NCBI RefSeq assembly: GCF_000612545.2
Contig: NZ_CP097800.1
Coordinates: forward strand, 5,406,501 to 5,470,500
Origin: Streptomyces sp. PCS3-D2
GTDB taxonomy: Bacteria; Actinomycetota; Actinomycetes; Streptomycetales; Streptomycetaceae
Length of the DNA stretch: 64,000 nucleotides
Direction: 5' to 3'
The notes below the pieces were generated by a model. That model saw nothing but the letters and a program-made list of their open reading frames with translations, had not been told where the DNA came from and did not search any database. Shown piece by piece: positions 38,610 through 45,384 of this stretch; position 1 is the stretch's first letter; each line of letters starts with the position of its first letter. A program made the translations under genes and the position numbers.

Positions 38610-38682
38610 GCCGGGAAACCTATCCCGGGCCATGCGGGGAAAACGGTTCGGGGCCGGGCCGGGCACCGGGGACAATGGGCCG

Positions 38683-41600
38683 GTGCGCTACGCGATTCTC
38701 GGCCCCGCCCAGGTCCTTCGCGACGACGGGACCCCCGTGGCCGTCGGCGGTGCCCGGCTGCGCGCGCTCCTGACCGCGCTCGCGCTGCGCCCGGGACGGG
38801 TGGTGCCGACCCGGCTGCTGGTCGAGCAGGTGTGGGACGGCGATCCGCCGGCCGACGCCGTCGCCGCCCTGCAGGCCCTGGTGGCCCGGCTGCGTCGGGC
38901 GCTGGGACACACCGCCGTGCTGTCCGCCGACGGCGGCTACCGGCTGGTCGCCGAGCGCGAGGACGTCGACCTGTACCGCTTCGAAGCGCTGGTCCGGGCC
39001 GGCGCCGGGGCGCGGGATCCGGCCGAGGCCGCCGCCTCGTACGGGGAGGCCCTCGCCCTGTGGCGCGGACCCGCCCTCGTGGACCTGCCCGATCCGGCCG
39101 TGGAAGCCGCGCGCTGGGACGCCGTACGGATGGACGCGCGCCGGGGCCGGCTCGCGGCGGCCCTGGCCCTCGGCGAGGCCGAGCGCTCCCTGCCGGAGCT
39201 GACCGCGCTGTGCGCACGGCAGCCGCTGGACGAGCCGCTGCAGGCGCTGCGGATCCTGGCCCTGCGCGACGCGGGCCGCCCGGCGGAGGCCCTGTCCGCC
39301 TACGACGAGGTCCGCCGCGATCTTGCCGAACGGCTCGGCACGGACCCCGGCCCGGCCCTGCGCGCCCTGCACGCGGAACTCCTGGCGCCTGCGGAATCCG
39401 GTCCGGGCACCGGGCCCGCGGCCGCCGTTCCGAGGTCCTCGCCCCCGGCCGGCGCCGAGCACCCGCCCCACGCCCCGGCCCCGTACGGCACCCCGGCCCC
39501 GCCCCAGCTCCGGGCCACGGCTCCGGTTCACGCCCCGGGCGGTGCCGCGGTCACGGCTGCGGACCCGGCCCGGCCCGGGGCCGCCGTCCCGCCCGCGCCC
39601 GCCGCCACCCCCGCTCCGCCCGGCCGGGGCACCGGCAACCTGCGGGCCCGGCTGACCACCTTCGTCGGCCGGGAGGACGACATCCGCGTCATCGGCGACG
39701 ATCTTGCGCGGGCCCGGCTCGTCACGCTCCTCGGGCCCGGCGGCGCCGGCAAGACCCGGCTCTCGCAGGAGGCTGCCGAGGCGCACGAGCCGCGCGGCGG
39801 ATGGCCCGACGGCGTGTGGCTCGTCGAGCTGGCCCCCGTCGACGACCCCGAGGACGTCGCCGAGGCCACGCTGACCGCCGTCGGCGCACGGGAGACCACG
39901 CTGCGCGGCGCCGCCGCCGAGGAACTGCGGGCGCTGACCGATCGCGGCGACGACCCCCTCGACCGGCTCGTGGAGCACTGTGCGCACCGCCGTCTGCTGC
40001 TGGTGTTGGACAACTGTGAGCACGTTGTCGAAGCTGCTGCGGCGCTTGCTGAACGCCTCCTTACGCATTGCCCTGGTGTTCAGGTCTTGGCCACCAGCCG
40101 CGAACCCCTCGGTGTGCCTGGGGAGATGGTTCGTCCGGTGGAACCGCTGCCCGACCCGATTGCGCTGCGGTTGCTGGGCGACCGTGGGGCGGCGGCCCGT
40201 GCCGGGTTTGCGGTGGAGGAGGATCCGGTCGCCGCTGCGGAGATCTGCCGTCGTCTCGATGGGCTGCCGTTGGCGATCGAGTTGGCGGCGGCGCGGCTGC
40301 GGCTGTTGACCCCGCGGCAGATCGCGGATCGGTTGGACGATCGGTTCCGGCTGTTGACCGGTGGTTCCCGTACGGTCCTGCCGCGTCAGCAGACCCTGCG
40401 TGCGGTCGTCGACTGGTCTTGGGACCTGCTTGACGAGGCCGAGCGCACGGTCCTGCGTCGGCTGTCGGTCTTCGCGGGCGGCTGTGACCTCGCTGCCGCC
40501 GAGGCCGTGTGCTCCGATCCGGCCGGGGACGGCGTCGCGGACGTCGCCGACACCCTCGGCTCCCTGGTCGACAAGTCCCTCGTGGTCGCCGCCCCCGCCC
40601 CCGACGGCACCGCCATGCGCTACCGACTCCTGGAGACGGTCGGCGAATACGCCGCGGAGCGCCTCGCCGAGGCCGACGACGAACGGGAGGAGACCACCGG
40701 CCGCCACCTCGTCCACTACCGCGAGCTCGCCCGGACCAGCGAGCCCCTGCTCCGCGGCCACCGCCAGCGCGAGGCGGCCGAGCGGCTCGCCACCGAGTAC
40801 GAGAACCTCCGTACCGCGCTGCGCCGGGCCGTCGCCACCCGCGACGCGGACGAGGCGCTCTGCCTCGTCCACTCCCTGGGCTGGTACTGGCACCTGCACG
40901 ACCAGCGCGCCGAGTCCCGGCACTGGGCGGAAGCGGTCGCGACGCTCGGCCCCAACCCGTTCGCGGCGCCCGTCGTCCCCGCGGAGCCGGTGTACGGGCA
41001 GCTCGTGGACTCGCCGCCGCCCTACGGCGGAGAGGTGCTCACCGAGGCCTGGCGCGCCCTGCACCTGCTCCGGCTGGTGGCCCGGGACCAGACCAGCAAG
41101 GACTGGGACGATCCCGAGGTCCGGTCGCTGATCGACGGGGTGATCGCCGCCTACCGGCCCGGGCTCCCGCAGACCTGCCGCATGCCGGGCTCCCTGTGGA
41201 TCTACGCCGTCATGATCGCGGGCAATGCCGAGCTGCTCAAGCAGGTCGTCGACGCGACCGTGGCCACCGCCCGCACGCTCGGCCGGAACTGGGAGCTCGC
41301 ATCCGCCCTCCAGTTGCGCGCCAACATCCTCGCCAACCGCGCCGACTGGGCGGGCGACGCCTCCCGCGACGCGGACGAGAGCCTGGAGCTGTTCCGGGAC
41401 CTCGGTGACGACTGGGGCTGCGCGGAGGCGCTCTCCGCCCGCGCGGAGTCCCGCGAGCGGCGGGGCGAGTACGCCCTGGCCGCCCGCGACTACCGCGAGG
41501 CGATCGCCTACGCCGAACGTCTCGGCGCGAAGGCGCAGGTGACGGTGTTGCGTGTGCGGATGGCCGGCATGCTCACCGAGAACGCCGAGATCGCGGAGGC

Positions 41601-42162
41601 GGAGCGGATCCTGACCGACATCACCACCTCGGTGCAGCAGTCCGGCAGCGAGGCGATGCCCGCCGCCCGGATGTTCCTCGCGGGCATCCTCGGCCGCACC
41701 GGCCGGATCCCCGAGGCCCGCGTCCAGATCCAGGTGCTGCGCGAGGAGTTCGCCTTCGGCGCGTACGCCGTCTTCAACGTCTTCCTGCTCGCCACGACGG
41801 CTTGGCTGGACAACCAGGACGGCTGTTTCGAGGACGCCCTGCAGGGGATTCGCGACGCCACGTCCGCCTTCCTGCATCCGCTGGCGCTGATGGTCGCCCC
41901 GCACCTGCCCGCGACGTTCCTCCTGACGGCCGCCGTCTCGCTGGTGTCGCCCGGCGGACCGCAGCGGGAGTACGACGGCGCGCGGCTGCTCGGCGCCTAT
42001 CACGCGCTGCTGCCGCCCGACCACTTCCCCGTGACCACCGAGCGCGAGGACTTCGCCTTCGCCGAGAAGCAGGCGCGGTCGGTGCTCGGCGACACGGCCT
42101 ACCGAGCGGCGTACGCCGAAGGCGGCGGCCTCACGCTGGAGGAGGCCACCGCCCTGGTCTGA
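38683..42162 (+). CDS. AfsR/SARP-type regulator with NB-ARC-like ATPase and TPR-like tail
   Basis: Residues 1-95 of the 1159 form an OmpR-type winged helix (RYAILGPAQVLRDDG, LRALLTALALRPGRVVPTRL). Residues 95-245 are the bacterial transcriptional activation domain (VDLYRFEALV, ALWRGPALVDLP). A Pro/Ala linker follows (250-335). The ATPase has Walker A LLGPGGAGKTRLS near 350 and Walker B RLLLVLDNCEHV near 443. From about 640 to the end the sequence is helical and TPR-like. SARPs activate antibiotic or export genes by binding heptamer direct repeats. The GTG at 38683 gives the family N-terminus. Codon use is unusual between about 39979 and 40500. It converges with an ABC exporter whose upstream region holds such repeats. 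Confidence 0.92.
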   Translation: MRYAILGPAQVLRDDGTPVAVGGARLRALLTALALRPGRVVPTRLLVEQVWDGDPPADAVAALQALVARLRRALGHTAVLSADGGYRLVAEREDVDLYRFEALVRAGAGARDPAEAAASYGEALALWRGPALVDLPDPAVEAARWDAVRMDARRGRLAAALALGEAERSLPELTALCARQPLDEPLQALRILALRDAGRPAEALSAYDEVRRDLAERLGTDPGPALRALHAELLAPAESGPGTGPAAAVPRSSPPAGAEHPPHAPAPYGTPAPPQLRATAPVHAPGGAAVTAADPARPGAAVPPAPAATPAPPGRGTGNLRARLTTFVGREDDIRVIGDDLARARLVTLLGPGGAGKTRLSQEAAEAHEPRGGWPDGVWLVELAPVDDPEDVAEATLTAVGARETTLRGAAAEELRALTDRGDDPLDRLVEHCAHRRLLLVLDNCEHVVEAAAALAERLLTHCPGVQVLATSREPLGVPGEMVRPVEPLPDPIALRLLGDRGAAARAGFAVEEDPVAAAEICRRLDGLPLAIELAAARLRLLTPRQIADRLDDRFRLLTGGSRTVLPRQQTLRAVVDWSWDLLDEAERTVLRRLSVFAGGCDLAAAEAVCSDPAGDGVADVADTLGSLVDKSLVVAAPAPDGTAMRYRLLETVGEYAAERLAEADDEREETTGRHLVHYRELARTSEPLLRGHRQREAAERLATEYENLRTALRRAVATRDADEALCLVHSLGWYWHLHDQRAESRHWAEAVATLGPNPFAAPVVPAEPVYGQLVDSPPPYGGEVLTEAWRALHLLRLVARDQTSKDWDDPEVRSLIDGVIAAYRPGLPQTCRMPGSLWIYAVMIAGNAELLKQVVDATVATARTLGRNWELASALQLRANILANRADWAGDASRDADESLELFRDLGDDWGCAEALSARAESRERRGEYALAARDYREAIAYAERLGAKAQVTVLRVRMAGMLTENAEIAEAERILTDITTSVQQSGSEAMPAARMFLAGILGRTGRIPEARVQIQVLREEFAFGAYAVFNVFLLATTAWLDNQDGCFEDALQGIRDATSAFLHPLALMVAPHLPATFLLTAAVSLVSPGGPQREYDGARLLGAYHALLPPDHFPVTTEREDFAFAEKQARSVLGDTAYRAAYAEGGGLTLEEATALV

Positions 42163-42218
42163 CCCGTCCCCCGACCGGGGCCCGTCCGGGACGCGATCCG
42201 GAGCAGGCCGGCCGCGGG

Positions 42219-43066
42219 TCAGGTCTTCTGGCGGAACTTGCGGACCGCGAGCGGCATGGTGACCGCCGTGATGGCCAGCGACCAGAGCAGTGTCATCCAC
42301 ACCGAGTCGCCGACGGGGGTGCCGTTGATCAGGGCGCGGGCGGCGTCCGCCAGGTTCGACAGCGGGTTGTAGTCCGTGAAGGACTGCAGCCAGCCCGGCA
42401 TCGTGGACGGCGGGGCGAAGATCGAGCTGCCGAACTGCAGCGGCATCAGGACCAGCATCGCCATGCCCTGGACGGCCTGGGCGGTCTTCATGGTGAGACC
42501 GAGCAGGATGAAGATCCACATCAGGGCGCTGCCGAAGACGGCCGACAGCCCGACGGCGAGGAGCAGGTCCAGCATCGAGGACTTGATCGACAGGCCGAGC
42601 AGGAAGCCCACGCCCAGCAGGATCGTGATGGCCACCAGCATCCGGCCGAGCTCGACGACGATCTTGGCGAGGAGCACGGACGACCGGGCGATCGGCATGG
42701 ACCGGAACCGGTCCATCACGCCCTTCTTGAAGTCGTCGTTGACCCCGGTCCCCACCGCCATCGCGATGTTCATGCCCATCATGGCCATCAGGCCGGGGAC
42801 CACGTAGTTCACGTAGTCGGCCTGGTTCCCCTTGCCGGAGATCGCGCCGCCGAAGACGAACACGAACAGCAGCGTGAAGATGATCGGCATGAACAGGACG
42901 TCGAACATCGACTCAGGGTCCTGCTTGATCTGCAGGGCGTTGCGGCGCACCAGGGCGCCGATGTGCCGCAGGTTGGCCCGCAGGCCGATCCGTCCCTCGC
43001 CGTGCCCGGCCAACGCCCGGGCCGGACCGGGGGCGGTGGGAGCCGGCTTCGTCGTGGTGGCGGCGC

Positions 43067-43070
<4 letters not shown>
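42219..43070 (-). CDS. DrrB-like ABC-2 exporter permease
   Basis: This 283-residue protein has about six transmembrane segments and the ABC-2 pattern of daunorubicin-resistance permeases: HIGALVRRNALQIKQDPESM, then FMPIIFTLLFVFVFGGAI, FKKGVMDRFRSMPIARSSVL and GWLQSFTDYNPLSNLADAAR. It should form an export channel with the adjacent ATPase. The ATG at 43070 overlaps the ATPase stop as ATGA. It converges with the SARP gene, and 56 bp separate the stops. The cargo is unknown; drug or lipid-like molecules are usual. Confidence 0.92.
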
Positions 43071-44080
<1,010 letters not shown>

Positions 44081-44102
44081 GCCCACCATGGGACCAGGGG
44101 CC

Positions 44103-44153
44103 ACTGACAAAGCACCGACAGGCGACCGACAAAGGTACGACAGACATACGACA
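44103..44153 (-). promoter_or_regulatory. Five heptamer direct repeats at 11-bp period, probable SARP site
   Basis: In the plus-strand reading the heptamers are ACTGACA (44103), ACCGACA (44114), ACCGACA (44125), TACGACA (44136) and TACGACA (44147). Each is followed by a 4-bp spacer, so the period is exactly 11 bp. In the direction of the exporter gene they read TGTCGTA, TGTCGTA, TGTCGGT, TGTCGGT and TGTCAGT. SARP regulators bind such same-face heptamers. They end about 22 bp before the exporter start. A clear -10 is not seen. Confidence 0.75.
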
Positions 44154-44188
44154 GCCCGCCGACGCGCCGGTAGGCGGTCGGCGGGCTG
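44152..44188. terminator. Hairpin after panB
   Basis: CAGCCCGCCGAC (44152-44163) and GTCGGCGGGCTG (44177-44188) form a perfect 12-bp stem with a 13-nt loop, 38 bp after the panB stop. No T-tract follows, as is usual in streptomycetes. It would separate panB from the exporter operon, and its end touches the heptamer array. Confidence 0.75.
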
Positions 44189-44226
44189 CCGGAGCGGGTC
44201 ACCTCACGTCAGCGGGCGCGTCCGGG

Positions 44227-45096
44227 TCAGTGGAAGGCGTGCTGCTCCTGCGGGAACGCCCCGCCGACGACGTCCTCGGCGAAGGCCTTCGCCGCGTCCG
44301 TCATGGTTTCGCGGAGCTTCGCGTACTGCTTGACGAACTTCGGCATCCTCCCGCCGGTCAGGCCCATCATGTCGGTCCACACCAGGACCTGGGCGTCGCA
44401 CTCCGCGCCCGCGCCGATACCGACCGTCGGGATGTGCAGGGACCGGGTGACCTCGGCGGCCAGTTCGGCCGGAACGAGCTCCAGCACCACCGCGAACGCA
44501 CCCGCGTCCTGCGCCGCCTTCGCGTCGCGCAGCAGCTGGTGCGCGGCTTCGTCGCCGCGGCCCTGCACCCGGTAGCCCATGGCGTTGACCGACTGCGGGG
44601 TCAGGCCCAGGTGGGACATGACGGGGATGCCCGACTGCACGATCAGCTCCGTCTGGGCCAGCGAACGCTCGCCGCCCTCCAGCTTCACGGCGCCCACTCC
44701 GGCCTCCTTGACCAGGCGGGTCGCGCTGCGGAGCGCCTGCACGGCGCCCTCCTGGTACGAGCCGAACGGCATGTCGCCGATGACCAGCGCGCGGCTGGTG
44801 CCGCGTACGACGGCCGCCGAGAGCATGGTCATGTGGTCCATCGTCACCGGGACGGTGGAGTCGAAGCCGAGGTGGCAATTGCCCATCGAGTCGCCGACGA
44901 GGATGACCGGGATGCCGGACTCGTCGAAGACGGACGCGGTCATCGCGTCGTAGGCGGTGAGCATGGGCCACTTCTCGCCGCGTTCCTTGGCGAGGGTCAG
45001 GTCGCGGACGGTGATGCGCCGGGTGCCCGTGCCTCCGTACAGGGTGGGGGAGGCCGCGGCTGCGGGTTCGCGGGCAGGCGAAACGGCATGCGTCAT
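44227..45096 (-). CDS. panB: 3-methyl-2-oxobutanoate hydroxymethyltransferase
   Basis: The 289-residue enzyme has the PanB pattern: WPMLTAYDAMTASVFDESG, ILVGDSMGNCHLG with the magnesium Asp near residue 65, GDMPFGSYQ, AVKLEGGER, PVMSHLGLTPQSV and ELVPAELA. It makes ketopantoate from ketoisovalerate with methylenetetrahydrofolate, the first step to pantothenate and CoA. The ATG at 45096 follows AAGGAG; an ATG at 45117 would skip that site. It is monocistronic, ended by a strong hairpin. The N-terminal Ala/Pro extension of about 20 residues is common in actinobacteria. Confidence 0.95.
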   Translation of the reverse strand: MTHAVSPAREPAAAASPTLYGGTGTRRITVRDLTLAKERGEKWPMLTAYDAMTASVFDESGIPVILVGDSMGNCHLGFDSTVPVTMDHMTMLSAAVVRGTSRALVIGDMPFGSYQEGAVQALRSATRLVKEAGVGAVKLEGGERSLAQTELIVQSGIPVMSHLGLTPQSVNAMGYRVQGRGDEAAHQLLRDAKAAQDAGAFAVVLELVPAELAAEVTRSLHIPTVGIGAGAECDAQVLVWTDMMGLTGGRMPKFVKQYAKLRETMTDAAKAFAEDVVGGAFPQEQHAFH

Positions 45097-45259
45097 TGCA
45101 ACTGCTCCTTGTGTCATCTCGAGGCACCCTCACGGTGTCCCCGGACTCACCCACCATGGTGGCATCCCCGGGGCCGTGGGCGGAAGTGGTGCGCCGGGCA
45201 CGCCACGCCGGGCACGCCAATGTGCGCGTTTCGTGACAAGCGGAACCCGCTGCGTACGG

Positions 45260-45299
45260 CCGTTCGTCCTTCCGGACGTGCGACCGCGACGAACGGTCG
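45260..45299. other. Nested inverted repeats in the panB-EEP gap
   Basis: CCGTTCGTC (45260-45268) is repeated in inverse as GACGAACGG (45288-45296). Inside the right arm CGACCG (45281-45286) pairs with CGGTCG (45294-45299). The 288-bp gap between panB and the next gene holds no coding region. The repeats could be an operator for the plus-strand gene or an attenuator-like structure. Confidence 0.4.
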
Positions 45300-45384
45300 T
45301 GATGTACGGCACGGAAGGCTCCGCTTCATCGCCTAGGGTCAGGAGGCGGGGACGGAGCGCGAGCACGGCAGTGAGGGCAGCGGC

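What the first reader, a model, noticed from the sequence alone, without database searches (positions are those of the whole stretch)
44103..44153. Five heptamers at exact 11-bp period upstream of a DrrAB-type exporter, next to a SARP gene
The heptamers (TGTCGTA twice, TGTCGGT twice, TGTCAGT) each have a 4-bp spacer, seen directly. Same-face heptamer direct repeats at 11 bp are the recognised binding signature of SARP regulators (ActII-ORF4, DnrI, AfsR). A 1159-residue SARP with ATPase and TPR parts lies less than 2 kb away and converges on the exporter. Five copies is more than most described sites. The inference is that this orphan SARP controls the exporter, forming a self-contained regulator/efflux unit without biosynthesis genes.
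Basis: partly seen in the sequence, partly recalled or inferred. Interest (0 to 1): 0.75.

Follow-up and report, generated by a model that had tools for sequence, protein, structure and literature searches.

The report
SARP regulator's operator controlling an exporter
Short DNA repeats in front of a Streptomyces drug-exporter operon look like the docking site of the regulator encoded next door; the regulator, the exporter and the repeats stay together across most of the genus, suggesting an uncharacterised efflux switch.

Summary
In detail: five TGTCNNN heptamers at exact 11-bp steps (minus strand, 44153-44103) precede a DrrAB-like exporter operon on which a 1159-residue SARP converges. The array is a conserved promoter element. 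Of 112 parsed exporter promoters from a genus sample, 110 have TGTC at -29/-28 from the ATG, 99 a unit at -40/-39, 92 at -51/-50; exact runs of three or more occur in 82 of 112 and in none of 20 shuffled sets. A -10-like hexamer ending in T follows at fixed distance in 110 of 110. If the mRNA is leaderless, the proximal units sit where AfsR's box sits on afsS. In 121 genomes, 111 have exporter and SARP adjacent and convergent, 8 have neither, 2 end at the exporter. Six SARP-paralogue loci with a convergent siderophore-interacting-protein gene carry similar repeats before that gene; 18 such genes without a neighbouring SARP do not. Five other paralogue loci have neither gene nor repeats. I conclude that the SARP activates the exporter through this array; binding, start site, signal and cargo are untested. 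It is a new variant of the known SARP theme.

The parts
44103..44153 (-). Operator array: five heptamers TGTCNNN at 11-bp period (unit starts 44153, 44142, 44131, 44120, 44109), i.e. -73, -62, -51, -40, -29 from ATG 44080
   Evidence: conserved in relatives
44088..44093 (-). Putative -10 element TCCCAT, 9 bp after the proximal heptamer
   Evidence: final T in 110 of 110 genus promoters with exact proximal TGTC; CACCGT, TCCCAT and CACTGT commonest
44080..44080 (-). Putative transcription start = A of start codon (leaderless mRNA), inferred
   Evidence: spacing from the -10-like hexamer and conserved ATGAC context; not measured
43067..44080 (-). DrrA-like ABC ATPase of the exporter
   Evidence: TIGR01188 drrA 374.1 bits, cut-off 312.45; PF00005
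42219..43070 (-). DrrB-like ABC-2 permease, overlapping the ATPase stop
   Evidence: PF01061, E 2.5e-31; TIGR00025 and TIGR01247 below their cut-offs
38683..42162 (+). Large SARP, 1159 aa: OmpR-type DNA-binding domain, BTAD, STAND/NB-ARC ATPase, long C-terminal region; convergent with the exporter
   Evidence: PF00486, PF03704, PF13191, PF00931; aligns to AfsR structures 8k60, 8jke, 8hvr. No TPR model was hit at E 0.001; TPR is by analogy with AfsR
38671..38676 (+). -10-like GACAAT before GTG 38683 of the SARP; similar hexamers in most relatives; no heptamer array there
44150..44195 (-). Terminator-like hairpin after panB (-39 kcal/mol); its 3' arm ends in the most distal TGTC of the array
44227..45117 (-). 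panB, upstream neighbour in the same direction
   Evidence: TIGR00222

Best explanation
The array is the operator of the adjacent large SARP. SARP protomers bind side by side, one per 11-bp unit, on one face of the DNA. The two proximal units (-40 to -19) lie over the -35 region, where the SARP stands in for a missing -35 element and recruits RNA polymerase to a weak -10 and a leaderless start at ATG 44080. This switches on the DrrAB-like exporter operon. Upstream units add cooperative binding. The panB hairpin just upstream would shield the operon from read-through, so expression should depend on the SARP. The STAND ATPase and C-terminal region presumably hold the SARP inactive until a signal, perhaps the exporter's cargo, is sensed. 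Shown by sequence: array, geometry, conservation, co-occurrence, similar repeats at the gene facing some SARP paralogues. Inferred: binding, activation, leaderless start, signal, cargo.
For: (1) Fixed place: proximal TGTC at -29/-28 in 80 of 81 (80 relatives plus window) and 110 of 112 (genus sample; the two sets overlap). (2) 11-bp steps: exact runs of three or more in 82 of 112, none in 20 shuffled sets; 11 is the commonest spacing. (3) Unit consensus TGTCGGTGGNN from 302 units. (4) Geometry: with the A of ATG as +1, the proximal units are -40..-30 and -29..-19, the positions of AfsR's repeats on afsS (PMC10936776); the -10-like hexamer follows at fixed distance (110 of 110 with final T), in 11 of 110 CACTGT as in afsS. 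(5) 121 genomes (own included): 111 with exporter and SARP adjacent and convergent, 8 with neither, 2 with the exporter at a contig end. (6) SIP-domain genes facing a SARP paralogue have TGT(C/A)G pairs 11 bp apart upstream in 6 of 6 loci; SIP genes with no SARP in the fetched stretch in 0 of 18. (7) DNA-contact residues: AfsR R92 kept in 60 of 60, T88 replaced by A in 59 of 59, in keeping with the kept T at unit position 3 and the changed base at position 5.
Against: No binding, expression or start-site data. Co-occurrence and conservation could reflect another regulator at the same promoter. 13 of 112 promoters have no two exact units in a row; 4 have one exact unit with degenerate neighbours. 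The heptamer-to-hexamer gap is 9 bp, not the published 8 (8 if the repeat is counted as the eight contacted bases). Of 11 SARP-paralogue loci, 5 (L232, L235-L238) have no SIP gene and no TGT(C/A)G pair in the fetched stretch, although three of these SARPs are 69-83% identical to the SARP of L233 in the C-terminal region: such SARPs can exist without a local target. In 4 of the 6 SIP loci the repeats are not at -29/-28 from a start codon. The widened pattern (C or A) was chosen after seeing two of these loci; with TGTCG alone the pair is in 3 of 5 against 0 of 18. No array at the SARP's own promoter.
Confidence: 0.83

Rival explanations
1. Another regulator with an OmpR-type winged helix (AfsR, PhoP or another SARP) binds the array; the neighbouring SARP has other targets.
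For: 11-bp direct repeats are also bound by AfsR and PhoP; the afsS box CGTT(T/C)ATCGNN is recognised by both (PMC10972967 passage). Some SARP paralogues lack any local target (5 of 11 loci).
Against: The unit TGTCGGTGGNN differs from the AfsR/PhoP repeat at five of nine defined positions. Exporter and SARP are present or absent together. SIP genes have the repeats beside a SARP paralogue (6 of 6) and not otherwise (0 of 18).
Confidence: 0.1
2. The SARP binds the array but mainly represses or only fine-tunes the exporter.
For: The SARP Atr32 is reported as a negative regulator (PMC10972967 passage); extra units and the overlap with the hairpin could serve other ends.
Against: The two proximal units lie where the activator AfsR binds on afsS, and the -10-like hexamers are weak.
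Confidence: 0.06
3. The repeats are a by-product of tandem duplication or terminator drift with no regulatory role.
For: Copy number varies between species and the distal unit overlaps the panB hairpin.
Against: Fixed distance to ATG and to the -10-like hexamer, variable spacers but constant TGTCGG, no such runs in shuffles.
Confidence: 0.01

Closest known systems
AfsR and the afs box of afsS (S. coelicolor)
   Same: Large SARP with DNA-binding domain, BTAD and nucleotide-binding part; 11-bp direct repeats at -40..-19; weak -10, poor -35 (PMC10936776 passages)
   Different: AfsR box has two repeats CGTT(T/C)ATCGNN and a different target; here TGTCGGTGGNN, usually three units, up to six exact in the genus sample and seven in the named relatives, before an exporter; P0001 scores 163.7 bits against the AfsR model cut-off of 1430
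PimR and the pimM operator (SARP-LAL)
   Same: Three heptamers with 4-bp spacers; at least two needed for binding; one target gene (PMC5930380 passages)
   Different: Heptamer CGGCAAG; site does not overlap the -35; belongs to an antibiotic pathway; target is a regulator gene
DnrI / ActII-ORF4 sites
   Same: Three heptamers at SARP-controlled promoters (PMC10972967 passage)
   Different: Small SARPs of antibiotic pathways; heptamer TCGAGC-like (recalled)
DrrAB / OtrC-type exporters
   Same: ATPase passes the TIGR01188 drrA cut-off
   Different: No cluster genes seen around it; cargo unknown; below the OtrC model cut-off

Membership tests
SARP regulators (P0001) | N-terminal OmpR-type winged helix followed by BTAD | tested here: met
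   PF00486 1.3e-7 and PF03704 9.1e-35, above cut-offs; AfsR alignment
Large SARPs | Central NB-ARC/STAND ATPase and C-terminal TPR region | tested here: inconclusive
   NB-ARC and AAA_16 above cut-off; no TPR model at E 0.001
AfsR orthologue | NCBIfam NF053617 equivalog cut-off 1430 bits | tested here: not met
   163.7 bits
SARP operator | Direct heptamer repeats with 11-bp period | tested here: met
SARP operator | 3' repeat 8 bp from the -10 and overlapping the -35 region | tested here: inconclusive
   9 bp from heptamer to the -10-like hexamer, constant in 110 of 110; -10 inferred, start site not mapped
SARP operator | Demonstrated binding by a SARP | not testable with these tools
   needs gel shift or ChIP
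DrrA-type ATPase | TIGR01188 cut-off 312.45 bits | tested here: met
   374.1 bits
DrrB-type permease | TIGR00025 / TIGR01247 cut-offs | tested here: not met
   90.0 of 146.9 and 58.9 of 223.05 bits; ABC2_membrane PF01061 is met

The most novel reading that the evidence does not exclude
A reusable regulatory cassette: a STAND-type SARP receptor dedicated to one convergent target through a TGTCGG array, kept across most of the genus outside antibiotic clusters and re-used with different effector genes (exporter; siderophore-interacting protein), with array length as an evolvable gain control and the receptor sensing the exporter's cargo.
Probability: 0.25. Interest if true: 0.7.

Novelty: new variant of a known kind. 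Interest (0 to 1): 0.55.

Why it matters
SARPs are known as switches of antibiotic clusters. Here one is a common Streptomyces gene (111 of 121 sampled genomes) that appears tied to an exporter operon with no cluster seen around it. That gives a simple system with over a hundred natural operator variants in which the signal sensed by a STAND-SARP and the role of repeat number can be tested directly, and a clear candidate motif (TGTCGGTGGNN) for an uncharacterised SARP subfamily.

Tried and rejected
A second possible target in the genome: a two-unit match at -40/-29 before a histidine-kinase-like gene (G000:C1:4548037, L245). The pair is present in 0 of 18 relatives, so I treat it as chance. 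Two-unit matches in the genome (6 in all, 2 of them in the array) equal the backward control (6).

Autoregulation: the SARP promoter was printed for the first 45 loci with a complete DNA-binding domain. None has a TGT(C/A)G pair at 11 bp, three have a single TGTCG, and most have a GACAAT/GAGAAT-like hexamer before GTG.

Terminator overlap as a general rule: a strict test (10-bp arm, one mismatch) found hairpin overlap with an in-register unit in 22 of 110 and 31 of 80, at various units: common, not universal.

The consensus promoter scan found none in 42000-45300 with 0.1 expected, so it says nothing. Structure prediction was not run: AfsR structures cover the DNA-binding part, and a model without DNA would not test binding. 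An order-level sample gave SARP matches in 166 of 197 genomes, all in one of six genera; the exporter was not searched there, so it is not in the co-occurrence count. Beyond GTDB's genus I have only the named genome-contig loci (Actinacidiphila, Streptantibioticus).

One search shows that L232, L235 and L236 are close relatives of the SIP-linked SARP (69-83% in the C-terminal region) without SIP gene or repeats downstream; they now stand as evidence against, and I lowered the best explanation from 0.85 to 0.83, raised the first rival from 0.08 to 0.10 and lowered the novel case from 0.30 to 0.25. The five positive SIP loci are the ones in which I first saw the repeats (L228-L231, L233); what adds is the 18 negatives, 13 of which are SIP genes of only 35-40% identity.

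Dropped rows: L227 (G057) from the 113 fetched promoters, because its ATPase gene is missing; L292 is the same gene as L272 and counted once. The S. coelicolor numbers SCO2257-2259 are a guess from gene order next to SCO2256 = panB (PMC2853524, one passage). No paper in the held library mentions SCO2257, SCO2258 or SCO2259. The other searches (lists of 63, 64 and 79 were capped at 15 of 19, 15 of 56 and 8 of 30) showed no title or abstract start that I recognised as describing this unit.

Full report
What is there. On the minus strand, 44153 to 44103, five TGTCNNN heptamers follow each other at exactly 11 bp. A three-unit pattern of this kind (one mismatch allowed) is expected 0.20 times per shuffled window and is found four times, in the array and running into the hairpin arm beside it. 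In the own genome (7.63 Mb; a Streptomyces by its relatives) the exact three-unit pattern occurs here and at one other place. The array starts at the foot of a strong hairpin after panB (-39 kcal/mol, z -7.06) and ends 22 bp before ATG 44080 of a DrrA-like ATPase gene. That gene (TIGR01188 cut-off met) overlaps a DrrB-like permease gene. A 1159-residue large SARP converges on the permease gene.

Conservation. Of 81 sequences (80 plus the window), 80 have TGTC at -29 or -28, 70 at -40 or -39, 69 at -51 or -50. In 77 of the 80 loci the SARP is found; the other three end within 0.5 kb of the permease. As a less biased sample I used 121 genomes of the genus and fetched 113 upstream regions; 112 could be parsed, the exception being G057, whose ATPase gene is gone. 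Of these, 110 have the proximal TGTC at -29 (83) or -28 (27), 99 have TGTC at -40/-39 and 92 at -51/-50. The longest exact 11-bp runs are 1 unit in 13, 2 in 17, 3 in 73, 4 in 6, 5 in 2 and 6 in 1. In 20 dinucleotide-shuffled copies of the set no run of three appeared, and runs of two averaged 1.5 per set. The unit consensus over 302 exact units is TGTCGGTGGNN. The two samples overlap and are not independent by descent; ATPase identity goes down to 70%.

Promoter geometry. In all 110 genus promoters with an exact proximal TGTC, a hexamer starting 16 bp after the TGTC start ends in T (83 of 83 and 27 of 27). The commonest are CACCGT, TCCCAT and CACTGT, and position 2 is A in 71 of 110. The distance from array to hexamer is constant, while 7 or 6 nt lie between the hexamer and the A of ATG, so the hexamer goes with the array. 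This fits a -10 element and a leaderless mRNA starting at ATG; leaderless mRNAs are 22.2% in S. avermitilis (PMC8780764, passages). With the A as +1 the proximal units occupy -40..-30 and -29..-19. The AfsR cryo-EM paper places the upstream repeat at -40 to -30 and the box at -40 to -19, describes a suboptimal -10 (CACTGT) and says that SARP sites have the 3' repeat 8 bp from the -10 (PMC10936776; abstract, outline, passages and section 7 read). Here the gap is 9 bp from the heptamer end, or 8 if the repeat is taken as the eight contacted bases.

The regulator. In the genus sample the C-terminal 324 residues of the SARP were found in 111 of 121 genomes, the own one included. All 111 also have an exporter orthologue (57% identity or more). 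By the coordinates, compared by eye, SARP and permease lie next to each other on opposite strands in all of them. Eight genomes (G030, G037, G043, G047, G050, G105, G113, G120) have no SARP match and only weaker permease matches (best E 1e-43 to 1e-60; 38-43% identity where listed); G050 is only 82% complete. In G028 and G112 the exporter lies at a contig end, so the SARP cannot be seen. G029 carries two exporter-SARP pairs, both with arrays (L145, L151). In G057 the ATPase gene and the array are lost, and the SARP and permease genes are broken. The DNA-binding domain keeps AfsR's R92 (60 of 60), which contacts the T at repeat position 3, while AfsR's T88, which contacts position 5, is alanine (59 of 59). 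Position 3 of the new unit is T and position 5 is G or A, against C or T in the AfsR repeat. This is consistent with a SARP of altered specificity, but is only an inference.

SARP paralogues. Eleven paralogue neighbourhoods were fetched. In six (L228-L231, L233, L239) the SARP converges on a siderophore-interacting-protein gene (PF04954, PF08021), and TGT(C/A)G repeats 11 bp apart lie upstream of it. In L229 they are at -50, -39 and -28 from ATG (the last with C for the first T), in L239 the proximal one is at -29; in the other four the distance differs. In the remaining five (L232, L235-L238) there is neither SIP gene nor such a pair in the fetched stretch; three of these SARPs are 69-83% identical to that of L233 in the C-terminal region. 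In a sample of 51 genomes, SIP genes beside a SARP have the pair within 160 bp upstream in 5 of 5 distinct loci (the same loci as five of the six above), while 0 of 18 SIP genes with no SARP in the fetched stretch have it. With TGTCG alone the figures are 3 of 5 and 0 of 18. Close relatives are among the five, so there are perhaps three independent cases. This separates the motif from the exporter and links it to SARP-neighboured genes, but it also shows that the SARP can stay where the SIP gene and its repeats are absent.

Against. There is no binding or expression evidence. The SARP's own promoter lacks the array (45 loci printed). A two-unit match before a kinase gene in the own genome has the same spacing but is not conserved (0 of 18), which shows that short matches of this kind occur by chance. 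TPR repeats were not recognised by Pfam. The five paralogue loci above do not show a dedicated local target.

Relation to the known. SARP sites with two or three heptamers are standard (PMC10972967, passages and section 4; PMC5930380, passages). What I found no description of, in the searches listed under Tried and rejected, is the heptamer, the variable array length, the exporter target outside a cluster and the pairing across most of the genus. Ten of the flanking ORFs between 32427 and 53461 show housekeeping or general domains and no cluster genes. I file it as a SARP-controlled promoter, a new variant of a known kind, with binding still to be shown.

Noticed in passing
window 44150-44195 (-): The panB hairpin and the distal operator unit share bases: the 3' arm of the stem ends in the first TGTC. 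Hairpin overlap with an in-register unit occurs in 22 of 110 and 31 of 80 relatives by a strict test.
   Followed up: partly
L228-L231, L233, L239: Paralogous large SARPs convergent with a siderophore-interacting-protein gene that carries TGT(C/A)G repeats: a second, uncharacterised SARP-target pair.
   Followed up: partly
L232, L235, L236: Close relatives of the SIP-linked SARP whose SIP gene and repeats are absent; in L235 an acyl-CoA-dehydrogenase-like gene (name recalled from sequence) follows instead. What these SARPs act on is open.
   Followed up: no
L227 (G057): A decayed unit: ATPase gene and array deleted, SARP and permease genes broken, panB present.
   Followed up: no
window 38671-38683 (+): The SARP gene has a GACAAT hexamer 6 bp before its GTG start, similar in most relatives, also suggesting a leaderless mRNA.
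   Followed up: partly
L037, L041, L042, L058 (Actinacidiphila) upstream of the ATPase: Inverted copies (CCGAC at 11-bp steps) precede the direct array, so array and inverted copies could form a long stem.
   Followed up: no
G029 C3 and C6 (L151, L145): One genome carries two exporter-SARP units, each with its own array.
   Followed up: no
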